Shown in pieces: positions 61,643 to 63,955 of a stretch of DNA of 64,000 nt. The notes under the pieces are model-generated. The model had not been told where the DNA came from and searched no databases. It saw only the letters and a program-made list of their open reading frames with translations. Each line of letters starts with the position of its first letter. Position 1 is the first letter of the stretch. Both the position numbers and the translations under genes were made by a program. This DNA comes from Flavivirga eckloniae (GTDB lineage: Bacteria; Bacteroidota; Bacteroidia; Flavobacteriales; Flavobacteriaceae): assembly GCF_002886045.1 (NCBI RefSeq), contig NZ_CP025791.1, positions 3,797,001 to 3,861,000 of the forward strand, in the 5' to 3' direction.

Positions 61643-61747
61643 AATTAAAATTATTTGTTCAAAAATAATAATTATATAACGCAAGAGAAGTTTTGTTGTA
61701 TAATCTTTAAAACTTTTGAAAAAACAGAAAAAAAACTAAGTCACAAT

Positions 61748-61777
61748 TTTGATTTCTTAAAATATTATTTACTTTAG
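61748..61777 (+). promoter_or_regulatory. predicted promoter of the pheA operon
   Basis: TTTG at 61748-61751, an 18-base spacer and TACTTTAG at 61770-61777, one mismatch from TAnnTTTG. Transcription would start near 61782, nine bases before the leader-peptide ATG. Confidence 0.6.
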
Positions 61778-61790
61778 CCTCATAATTACT

Positions 61791-61874
61791 ATGACAATGA
61801 CAGTATTTTATACATTTTTTAACAACTGGTTTTATTTCTTTTATAGCAAAAGGAACGAGACGTTGTATGTATAA
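61791..61874 (+). CDS. aromatic leader peptide of the pheA attenuator
   Basis: A 27-codon ORF, too short for usual gene calling, encodes MTMTVFYTFFNNWFYFFYSK followed by RNETLYV. It holds six Phe, four Tyr and one Trp among 27 residues, with a run WFYFFY at codons 13-18 (61827-61844). It starts nine bases after the predicted transcription start and is followed by an intrinsic terminator and by pheA. This is the form of a leader peptide on which ribosomes stall when charged phenylalanyl- or tyrosyl-tRNA is scarce. No RBS is obvious, as is usual in Bacteroidota. Confidence 0.8.
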   Translation: MTMTVFYTFFNNWFYFFYSKRNETLYV

Positions 61875-61898
61875 TTTATAACAATAAATTTTAATATG

Positions 61899-61928
61899 AG
61901 TCTCGATGAAAATCGGGACTTTTTTTTG
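61899..61928 (+). terminator. intrinsic terminator of the pheA attenuator
   Basis: AGTCTCGAT pairs with ATCGGGACT (one G-U pair) around GAAA and is followed by seven further T bases. GTCTCG (61900-61905) can instead pair with CGAGAC (61856-61861) inside the leader ORF, forming an antiterminator. Confidence 0.85.
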
Positions 61929-61985
61929 TTCAACTTTTAATTGAATAAATGCAATTAAGGTTGAAGGTATATAAAAAACTAGATT

Positions 61986-62813
61986 TTGATTAAAACGGTA
62001 GCCATACAGGGAGTAAAAGGATCTTTTCATCATATTGTGTCTCAGCAATTTTTTGACGAAAATGTCGATGTTATAGAGTGTTTAACCTTCGATAAGGTCG
62101 TAGATTCTTTAATTACGGAAGAATGCGATGCCGCCATTATGGCCTTGGAAAACTCTATAGTAGGGTCGATTATTCCTAATTACGCATTAATTGATACTTA
62201 CGGTTTGCACATTGTTGGCGAGCATTATCTGGACATTCAGCATAACTTAATGGCTTTGCCGGGGCAGAAGATAGAAGATATTAAAGAAGTGTATTCGCAT
62301 CCCATGGCATTGCTACAATGTAAGGAGTTTTTTAAGCAATATCCGCATATAAAATTGGTGGAAGATAAAGATACGGCAGAGGTGGCACAACGTATACAGG
62401 AAAAAAAGCTTAAAGGAATAGGGGCTATTGCCAGTGTTATGGCTGCAGATATATTCGAGTTAGATGTTTTGGCAGCCAGTATTCAAACTATAAAGCACAA
62501 CGAAACACGTTTTGTTATTGTGAAGCGAACAAATTCGGAAGTTCCGGAAAATGAGATGAACAAAGCGTCGGTTAAATTTGAAAGCGATCATAAGCGAGGT
62601 AGTCTCGCGGCTATTCTTAATGTAATGAGCGATTGCAAGCTAAATCTAACTAAAATTCAATCCCTACCAATAATTGATGAGCCTTGGAAGTATGCTTTTT
62701 TTGTTGATATTACTTTTGACGAATATATAGATTTTAAAAAATCGAAATCTATAATAGATATTATGGGCGAAGGGTTTAAAGTGTTGGGAGAATATAAAAA
62801 TGCTAAATTATGA
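61986..62813 (+). CDS. pheA: prephenate dehydratase
   Basis: The start codon is TTG at 61986: a TAG stop lies two codons upstream and no ATG occurs before the conserved sequence TVAIQGVKGSFHH. The 275-residue protein has the PDT domain (FDKVVDSLITEECDAAIMALENSIVGSI, EHYLDIQHNLMAL, YSHPMALLQCKEFF, ETRFVIV) and a C-terminal ACT regulatory domain (RGSLAAILNVMSDCKLNLTKIQSLPI), which binds phenylalanine. It converts prephenate to phenylpyruvate. There is no fused chorismate mutase. The gene stands behind the leader peptide and terminator, and its TGA overlaps the next ATG. Confidence 0.93.
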   Translation: MIKTVAIQGVKGSFHHIVSQQFFDENVDVIECLTFDKVVDSLITEECDAAIMALENSIVGSIIPNYALIDTYGLHIVGEHYLDIQHNLMALPGQKIEDIKEVYSHPMALLQCKEFFKQYPHIKLVEDKDTAEVAQRIQEKKLKGIGAIASVMAADIFELDVLAASIQTIKHNETRFVIVKRTNSEVPENEMNKASVKFESDHKRGSLAAILNVMSDCKLNLTKIQSLPIIDEPWKYAFFVDITFDEYIDFKKSKSIIDIMGEGFKVLGEYKNAKL

Positions 62814-63955
62814 TTGAAGCAGCAAACAGATTGCAAACGGTAGAGGAATATTACTTTTCAAAGAAATTAAGAGAAGTAAGTTTCCTTATAAATAGCGGTA
62901 AACCTATTATTAATTTAGGGATTGGTAGTCCGGATTTACAGCCGCCAAAAAGGGTTGTAGAGGCTATAAAGGAAGGTTTGCTGGCTCCTAATGCACATAA
63001 ATATCAGAGTTATCAAGGTTTGCCAGAGCTAAGAGATGCTATCGTTGGATTTTATAAAGAGCATTTTTCGGTTTCTTTAAGTGCTTCAACAGAGGTTTTA
63101 CCTCTAATGGGAAGTAAGGAAGGGATTATGCATATTTCAATGGCCTATTTAAATGAAGGAGATGAGGTATTGATTCCAAATCCAGGATACCCAACTTACC
63201 AATCTGTTACAAAATTAGTAGGAGCAAAACCTGTTTTTTACGAACTGGATGCTGCTAACAATTGGTTGCCGGATTTTGAAGCTCTAGAGCAATTGGATTT
63301 GAGCAAGGTAAAACTAATGTGGGTAAACTATCCGCATATGCCAACTGGAGCAACGCCAAATACATATTTGTTTGAAGAATTAGTAGCATTTGCCAAACGT
63401 CATAATATTTTAATAGTTAATGATAATCCGTATAGCTTTATATTAAATGATGCTCCAAAAAGCATATTAAGCGTTACAGGAGCAAAAGATGTTTGTTTAG
63501 AGCTTAACTCGCTAAGTAAAACCTTTAATATGGCTGGCTGGCGCGTAGGTATGGTTGTTGGAGACAGCAAGCATATAAACAATATTTTAAAGGTGAAGAG
63601 TAACATGGATTCTGGTATGTTCTATGGGATTCAAAAAGGAGCTATTGAAGCTTTAAAATGTTCAGAAATGTGGTTTGTTACATTAAATAGCGTGTACAAA
63701 CGACGTCGCGATTTAGTTTGGCGATTAGCAAAAGCTTTAAACTGTACTTACGATGAAAATGCAACGGGGCTTTTTGTTTGGGCTAAATTACCAGAAGGGA
63801 TTAAAGCTGAAACATACATAGATGAGGTGTTAAAAAATAAACATGTATTTATTACACCGGGAACTATTTTTGGGAGTAAAGGCGAAGGGTATATCCGATT
63901 TTCTCTATGTGCGCCAACCGAAGTTTTAGAAGAAGCTATAAAACGAGTTGAATAA
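62810..63955 (+). CDS. PLP-dependent class I/II aminotransferase (probably aromatic)
   Basis: The 381-residue fold-type I aminotransferase has INLGIGSPDLQPP, HKYQSYQGLPELRDAIVGFY, IPNPGYPTYQSVTKLVG, MWVNYPHMPTGA, IVNDNPYSFI and the PLP lysine in LNSLSKTFNMAGWRVGM. It begins in the last four bases of pheA (ATGA). The position after prephenate dehydratase, behind an aromatic leader peptide, suggests amination of phenylpyruvate or 4-hydroxyphenylpyruvate; the sequence alone would also allow other keto acids. The window ends 45 bases after its stop, where no feature is seen. The likely next genes (tyrA, aroG) fall outside. Confidence 0.9.
   Translation: MIEAANRLQTVEEYYFSKKLREVSFLINSGKPIINLGIGSPDLQPPKRVVEAIKEGLLAPNAHKYQSYQGLPELRDAIVGFYKEHFSVSLSASTEVLPLMGSKEGIMHISMAYLNEGDEVLIPNPGYPTYQSVTKLVGAKPVFYELDAANNWLPDFEALEQLDLSKVKLMWVNYPHMPTGATPNTYLFEELVAFAKRHNILIVNDNPYSFILNDAPKSILSVTGAKDVCLELNSLSKTFNMAGWRVGMVVGDSKHINNILKVKSNMDSGMFYGIQKGAIEALKCSEMWFVTLNSVYKRRRDLVWRLAKALNCTYDENATGLFVWAKLPEGIKAETYIDEVLKNKHVFITPGTIFGSKGEGYIRFSLCAPTEVLEEAIKRVE

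What the first reader, a model, noticed from the sequence alone, without database searches (positions are those of the whole stretch)
61748..62813. Complete candidate ribosome-mediated attenuator with an aromatic leader peptide before pheA
Seen in the sequence: a promoter-like pair, a 27-codon ORF with 11 aromatic residues (codons 13-18 WFYFFY), a GTCTCG site that pairs either with CGAGAC inside the leader ORF (codons 22-24) or within a nine-base-pair terminator ending in T8, then pheA. The geometry is consistent. A ribosome stalled at the aromatic run leaves CGAGAC free, so the antiterminator forms. A ribosome that runs to the stop (61874) covers it and lets the terminator form. The mechanism is established for pheL/pheA in Enterobacteria; finding it in a bacterium whose translation mostly lacks Shine-Dalgarno sites is less familiar to me.
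Basis: partly seen in the sequence, partly recalled or inferred. Interest (0 to 1): 0.85.

Follow-up and report, generated by a model that had tools for sequence, protein, structure and literature searches.

The report
Aromatic leader-peptide attenuator before pheA
In front of the phenylalanine/tyrosine biosynthesis genes lies a tiny gene rich in phenylalanine and tyrosine codons plus three competing RNA hairpins, so a ribosome's progress over those codons should decide whether the pathway genes are transcribed; it is a textbook switch, but it turns out to be conserved across a whole class of bacteria and has no entry in the RNA family database.

Summary
Confirmed. The window (a Flavivirga genome, Flavobacteriaceae) carries a ribosome-mediated transcription attenuator before a pheA–aminotransferase–tyrA–DAHP synthase/chorismate mutase operon. 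It missed the first hairpin: a 1:2 hairpin (61809-61873) that holds region 2 (CGAGAC), giving the classical 1:2 / 2:3 / 3:4 set (predicted -15.4, -14.3, -13.0 kcal/mol). Of 126 non-redundant pheA upstream regions, 121 were detected with aromatic leader ORF, complementary region 2 and terminator; three more have a leader by inspection, two have none. Regions 2 and 3 change together (CGAGAC/GTCTCG, CGGGACT/AGTCCCG, AGGATTGTG/TACAATCCT, AGCGGGA/TCCCGCT); own pairs beat swapped pairs in 5000 of 5000 permutations. Region 2 starts 7-12 nt after the last aromatic codon in 118 of 121. Outside the order, 15 of 26 Bacteroidia pheA loci carry it, against 0 of 520 shuffles. Rfam's nearest analogue, Bacteroid-trp, matches this genome's own trp leader; the pheA element matches no family. 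A 2021 Flavobacterium psychrophilum transcriptome paper listed a conserved structured element before pheA without explaining it in its main text. No expression data exist here, so regulation itself is inferred. Known mechanism, new and widespread member.

The parts
61747..61777 (+). Promoter of Bacteroidetes type: TTTTG (from 61747) and -7 element TACTTTAG (61770-61777)
   Evidence: TTTG-N17-23-TAnnTT[A/T]G is found before 64% of 121 leaders against 0.4% of random 80-nt stretches; consensus TTTG/TAnnTTTG from PMC6847099. Start of transcription near 61782 is inferred from G being at -5 in that paper.
61791..61874 (+). Leader peptide ORF, 27 codons, MTMTVFYTFFNNWFYFFYSKRNETLYV; predicted 5' UTR of about 9 nt
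   Evidence: aromatic fraction over 121 homologues 0.39 in this frame against 0.12 and 0.18 in the others and 0.16 in shuffles; A at -3 in 104 of 121
61827..61844 (+). Control codons TGG TTT TAT TTC TTT TAT (WFYFFY); also most of region 1
   Evidence: conserved aromatic run in relatives
61809..61873 (+). Hairpin 1:2: TATACAT/ATGTATA, ACAAC/GTTGT, GTTTT/GAGAC, TTTCTTTT/AAAAGGAA; sequesters region 2
   Evidence: pair counts; leader-only folds of 121 homologues have mean z -2.9, 97.5% below -1
61856..61905 (+). Antiterminator 2:3: CGAGAC (61856-61861) with GTCTCG (61900-61905) plus an inner A/T-rich stem
   Evidence: -14.3 kcal/mol, 0 of 200 shuffles
61898..61927 (+). Terminator 3:4: GAGTCTCGAT-GAAA-ATCGGGACTT, T8 at 61920-61927
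   Evidence: -13.0 kcal/mol, 0 of 200 shuffles; 98.8% of cells paired
61986..62813 (+). pheA, prephenate dehydratase, TTG start, first gene of the operon
   Evidence: Pfam PF00800 E 1.3e-55
62810..63955 (+). Class I/II aminotransferase, overlaps pheA by 4 nt; followed outside the window by prephenate dehydrogenase (L111:4075-4926) and DAHP synthase/chorismate mutase (L111:4948-6030)

Best explanation
A classical ribosome-mediated transcription attenuator for the Phe/Tyr operon. RNA polymerase starts about 9 nt before the leader ORF and a ribosome loads close to the 5' end without a Shine-Dalgarno site. When charged tRNA-Phe/tRNA-Tyr are scarce, the ribosome stalls in codons 13-18. It then covers region 1 and leaves CGAGAC (region 2) free; CGAGAC pairs with GTCTCG (region 3) and polymerase reads into pheA. 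When the tRNAs are charged, the ribosome reaches the stop at 61872-61874 and covers region 2, region 3 pairs with region 4, and transcription ends near 61927. If no ribosome loads, the 1:2 hairpin holds region 2 and termination also wins. Shown here: the sequence elements, their conservation, the co-varying pairings and the fixed spacing. Inferred: the transcription start, translation of the leader, the stalling, and regulation itself.
For: Three mutually exclusive hairpins in the window, of similar stability. On a 50-sequence alignment, 1:2 plus 3:4 has 91.3% of cells paired against 41-57% when slid, and 17 pairs with two-sided changes against 9.1 in shuffles, 0 of 500. Region 2 pairs with its own region 3 better than with others' in all of 5000 permutations over 34 distinct arms, region 2 being sought in a stretch defined without it. 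121 of 126 upstream regions carry the full set; region 2 begins 7-12 nt after the last aromatic codon in 118, mode 11. Variants whose stop falls before region 2 put it a few nt upstream, where a terminating ribosome should still overlap region 2. Synonymous compensatory change: TAT ACA/GTATAA becomes TAC ACA/GTGTAA in several relatives. Leaders of the same kind stand before hisG (MNFIQLHHHHFHICSQAK), trpE (MNTILNNTWWWSFRNLRS, Rfam RF01692) and ilvD (MKKQILNIVSIIVIVIISQR) in the same genome. 15 of 26 pheA loci elsewhere in Bacteroidia carry it, 0 of 520 shuffles.
Against: No transcript ends, start sites, ribosome footprints or starvation data were available. Pair counting for 2:3 alone on the alignment was weaker (8 pairs with two-sided change against 5.3, 38 of 500 shuffles reach it), partly because GTCTCG is also held by the terminator and the alignment is poor among distant relatives. 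Two of the 126 upstream regions (L017, L029) and 8 of 26 in other orders show no such leader. Some leaders (e.g. L156, L146) end 18-21 nt beyond region 2, where a terminating ribosome might not cover all of it.
Confidence: 0.93

Rival explanations
1. The terminator/antiterminator pair is real but is worked by something other than a translating ribosome: a metabolite (riboswitch), uncharged tRNA (T-box) or a protein; the ORF is a by-product of a T-rich RNA structure.
For: The aromatic run is well conserved at nucleotide level too, because its TTTCTTTT half lies in the 1:2 hairpin.
Against: Aromatic fraction is 0.39 in the ORF frame against 0.12-0.18 in other frames. Leader length changes by whole codons. 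TGG changes to TTT/TTC/TAT, keeping an aromatic residue. The leader persists while the RNA arms are replaced by quite different sequences. No T-box or riboswitch match at the element.
Confidence: 0.04
2. The leader peptide itself is the sensor, as in TnaC: a nascent-chain arrest responding to free Phe/Tyr.
For: A translated short ORF before a regulated operon is shared with such systems; TnaC itself from general knowledge.
Against: Outside the aromatic residues the peptide is not conserved, and its C-terminal third is missing in early-stop variants. The same genome uses His, Trp and Ile/Val runs before the matching operons, as expected if codons are read.
Confidence: 0.02
3. A chance T-rich ORF and an ordinary terminator with no regulatory role.
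For: The genome is A/T-rich; 21 of 805 short ATG ORFs in the window have at least five aromatic residues in eight codons.
Against: Conservation and co-variation in over 120 non-redundant relatives; the neighbouring upstream gene is on the other strand, so the terminator does not end a known upstream transcript; one hit among 36 control genes.
Confidence: 0.01

Closest known systems
pheL/pheA attenuator of Enterobacteria (Rfam RF01859 Phe_leader)
   Same: Same position before pheA, Phe-rich leader peptide, three competing hairpins and a U-run terminator (enterobacterial side from general knowledge).
   Different: Phe_leader does not match the window element; there are only weak sub-threshold matches to two distant relatives, L128 (34.3 bits) and L023 (31.8), cut-off 55. 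Here the run mixes Phe, Tyr and often Trp, the operon includes tyrA and DAHP synthase, and the start is near-leaderless with no Shine-Dalgarno site.
Bacteroid-trp leader (Rfam RF01692)
   Same: Ribosome-type attenuator of Bacteroidetes; this genome's own trpE leader matches it at 61.5 bits, over the cut-off of 49.
   Different: Trp run, other operon; the model does not match the pheA element.
Structured 5' element upstream of pheA in Flavobacterium psychrophilum (PMC9723704)
   Same: Very probably the same element: before pheA, found in several Flavobacteriaceae genera, without an Rfam hit; the paper also reports leader-peptide attenuation before amino-acid operons.
   Different: The main text gives no leader peptide, hairpins or mechanism for the pheA element; its supplements could not be read here.

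Membership tests
Ribosome-mediated (leader-peptide) transcription attenuator | Short translated ORF with a run of codons for the end product | tested here: met
   WFYFFY in a 27-codon ORF; conserved in-frame in 121 of 126 upstream regions. Translation itself not tested.
Ribosome-mediated (leader-peptide) transcription attenuator | Mutually exclusive 1:2, 2:3, 3:4 hairpins with a terminator and U-run before the first gene | tested here: met
Ribosome-mediated (leader-peptide) transcription attenuator | Control codons placed so that a stalled ribosome frees region 2 and one at the stop covers it | tested here: met
   Region 2 begins 7-12 nt after the last aromatic codon in 118 of 121; stop end 13 nt after region 2 in the commonest class
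Ribosome-mediated (leader-peptide) transcription attenuator | Premature termination that depends on charging of the matching tRNA | not testable with these tools
   Needs transcript and starvation data
Rfam Phe_leader (RF01859) | Score above the family's gathering cut-off (55 bits) | tested here: not met
   No match in the window with E<=1; best distant relative 34.3 bits
Rfam Bacteroid-trp (RF01692) | Score above the cut-off (49 bits) | tested here: not met
   Not for the pheA element; met by the trpE leader of the same genome (61.5 bits)
T-box | Specifier loop and T-box antiterminator | tested here: not met
   No Rfam T-box match at E<=1

The most novel reading that the evidence does not exclude
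A pheA attenuator that spans class Bacteroidia (probably ancestral there) and works with a leader ORF starting some 6-9 nt from the RNA 5' end and no Shine-Dalgarno site, and that has been doubled in series at least three times as a two-stage gate. If right, tight transcription-translation coupling must be routine in these bacteria, with ribosome loading on a nearly leaderless RNA as the pacing step.
Probability: 0.35. Interest if true: 0.6.

Novelty: new member of a known kind. Interest (0 to 1): 0.45.

Why it matters
It explains a conserved, so far unexplained RNA element before pheA in a major phylum and gives an annotatable family. Because this mechanism needs a ribosome close behind RNA polymerase, its presence before several amino-acid operons makes transcription-translation coupling in bacteria without Shine-Dalgarno sites directly testable. 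Early-stop variants and serial double attenuators are natural experiments on ribosome position and on switch steepness.

Tried and rejected
Sigma-70 style promoter scan gave nothing clearly above shuffles, as expected for this phylum; the Bacteroidetes consensus was used instead. The weak Rfam hit snoZ163 is chance. Other own-genome matches to the model (E 0.002 and above) were not followed up in detail. Five of the weak matches in other genomes (L149, L154, L164, L166, L167) were read and looked like ordinary terminators after coding sequence. Pair counting on the alignment was weak for the antiterminator alone, so an alignment-free swap test was used. The minus-strand ORF 61707-62048 (113 aa) overlapping the element is taken as spurious: it covers the conserved + strand RNA.

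Full report
WHERE. The window is G000:C1:3797001-3861000 of a 5.67 Mb genome. Its same-genus relatives are on contigs whose lengths match named Flavivirga records (e.g. 481,472 bases, F. algicola), so it is a Flavivirga (Flavobacteriaceae). The gene upstream, an ABC-transporter ATPase by its sequence, is on the other strand. Downstream run pheA (61986-62813), an aminotransferase, prephenate dehydrogenase, and DAHP synthase fused to chorismate mutase: an operon that makes both phenylalanine and tyrosine.

WHAT IS THERE. In addition, the leader RNA folds into a 1:2 hairpin from 61809 to 61873: TATACAT/ATGTATA, ACAAC/GTTGT, GTTTT/GAGAC and TTTCTTTT/AAAAGGAA. Predicted energies are -15.4 kcal/mol for 1:2, -14.3 for 2:3 and -13.0 for 3:4. 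The minimum-energy fold of the whole leader is 1:2 plus 3:4, the terminated state expected when nothing is translated.

START. The promoter is of Bacteroidetes type. TTTG-N17-23-TAnnTT[A/T]G stands before 64% of homologous leaders, against 0.4% of random stretches. With G of the -7 element at -5 (PMC6847099), transcription should start near 61782. That leaves about 9 nt before the ATG here, and about 6 nt in the commonest class of relatives, where 10 nt separate the -7 element from the ATG. There is no room for a Shine-Dalgarno site. A at -3, a known positive determinant in F. johnsoniae, is present in 104 of 121.

CONSERVATION OF THE PEPTIDE. All 80 named relatives found by PheA carry a leader of the form ...YTYFNNWFYFFFSKRNETLYV or a close variant. 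In 126 non-redundant upstream regions from the order, 121 carry leader, terminator and complementary region 2. L132 and L145 carry a leader by inspection, and L162 carries two in series. L017 and L029 have none. The aromatic fraction is 0.393 in frame, 0.121 and 0.181 out of frame, and 0.159 for shuffled leaders. At one position W is replaced by F or Y (39 W, 16 F, 1 Y among 63 matches to the pattern); going from TGG to TTT, TTC or TAT takes two base changes.

CONSERVATION OF THE RNA. On 50 aligned leaders, 1:2 plus 3:4 has 91.3% of cells paired (41-57% slid), 17 pairs with two-sided changes (shuffled 9.1) and a covariation score of 0.221 (shuffled 0.178, slid at most 0.128); 0 of 500 shuffles reach any of these. 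The window's own sequence was used to draw the structure, which favours it against the slid versions. An instructive case: in several relatives (e.g. L090, L096, L104) TTATACAT/ATGTATAA becomes TTACACAT/ATGTGTAA, through a synonymous Tyr change on one side and a synonymous Val change on the other. L025 replaces the inner stem by CTTCTACT/AGTAGAGG. For 2:3 an alignment-free test was made: among 34 distinct terminator arms, a leader's tail pairs with its own arm (score 12.1) better than with swapped arms (9.4, sd 0.33; 0 of 5000 permutations). Region 2 and region 3 thus move together: CGAGAC/GTCTCG, CGGGACT/AGTCCCG, AGGATTGTG/TACAATCCT, AGCGGGA/TCCCGCT, GAGGCTTTT/AAAAGCCTC.

GEOMETRY. The gap between the last aromatic codon and region 2 is 11 nt in 65 of 121 and 7-12 nt in 118. 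A ribosome with that codon in its A site covers roughly ten further bases (general knowledge), so region 2 is just free. The stop usually ends 13 nt after region 2, so a terminating ribosome sits on region 2. In 13 leaders the stop comes before region 2 ends. In the commonest of these (stop right after FFFS or FFFR) the stop ends 5 nt before region 2, and a terminating ribosome would still overlap most of it. Selection therefore appears to act on ribosome position rather than on the peptide's end.

SPREAD. A covariance model finds one clear copy in the own genome (E 2.4e-25, next 0.002). Strong copies lie before pheA in several families of the order. Among 26 pheA loci from other orders of class Bacteroidia, 15 carry leader, terminator and region 2 at a score never reached in 520 shuffles. 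Three lineages (L162 with its duplicate L141, L206, L210) have two leader-terminator units in series (by script for two and by reading for L206).

OTHER ATTENUATORS IN THIS GENOME. hisG is preceded by MNFIQLHHHHFHICSQAK, trpE by MNTILNNTWWWSFRNLRS and ilvD by MKKQILNIVSIIVIVIISQR, each followed by a terminator-like hairpin. thrA is preceded by a Thr/Ile-rich ORF without a recognisable terminator. The trp one is Rfam's Bacteroid-trp.

KNOWN OR NEW. The mechanism is textbook. In Bacteroidetes the trp version is in Rfam. A transcriptome study of F. [quoted passage not shown] its supplements could not be read. From memory, a 2004 comparative study (Vitreschak et al.; cited in PMC1262725) may have listed some attenuators in this phylum; I could not check it. 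Near-leaderless leader peptides are also known: S. meliloti trpL starts at its ATG (PMC7298713). The pheA element is therefore a new, well-supported and widespread member of a known kind.

WHAT IS INFERRED. Transcription start, translation, stalling and amino-acid response rest on inference. That both Phe and Tyr are sensed follows from the codon mix and the operon content, not from a test.

Noticed in passing
L162:220-480 (G059), L206 and L210 upstream of pheA: Two aromatic leader-peptide/terminator units in series before pheA in three separate lineages, a possible two-stage attenuator.
   Followed up: partly
L175:363-490 (G000:C1 about 150362): His leader MNFIQLHHHHFHICSQAK with a terminator before hisG in the same genome; probably the unexplained hisG element named in PMC9723704.
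   Followed up: partly
L176 minus strand (G000:C1 about 4289328-4289384): Trp leader MNTILNNTWWWSFRNLRS before trpE, matches Rfam Bacteroid-trp at 61.5 bits.
   Followed up: partly
L177:183-310 (G000:C1 about 3706382): Ile/Val-rich leader MKKQILNIVSIIVIVIISQR with terminator before ilvD, more than 200 nt upstream of the gene; a sub-threshold SAM-II riboswitch match (41.0 bits, cut-off 44) lies on the other strand nearby, L177:22-74.
   Followed up: no
L178:184-291 (G000:C1 about 355983): Thr/Ile-rich ORF before the aspartokinase/homoserine dehydrogenase gene, without a recognisable terminator.
   Followed up: no
window 61920-61997 and L041, L045, L054, L063 starts: In many relatives the pheA start codon follows the terminator T-run at once, elsewhere about 60 nt later after a further small inverted repeat; how pheA is translated so close to the hairpin is unclear.
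   Followed up: no
L017 upstream of pheA (G024): The attenuator is missing and the region holds a repeated unit of roughly 110 bases with a CCCGCC..GGCGGG hairpin, about three copies.
   Followed up: no
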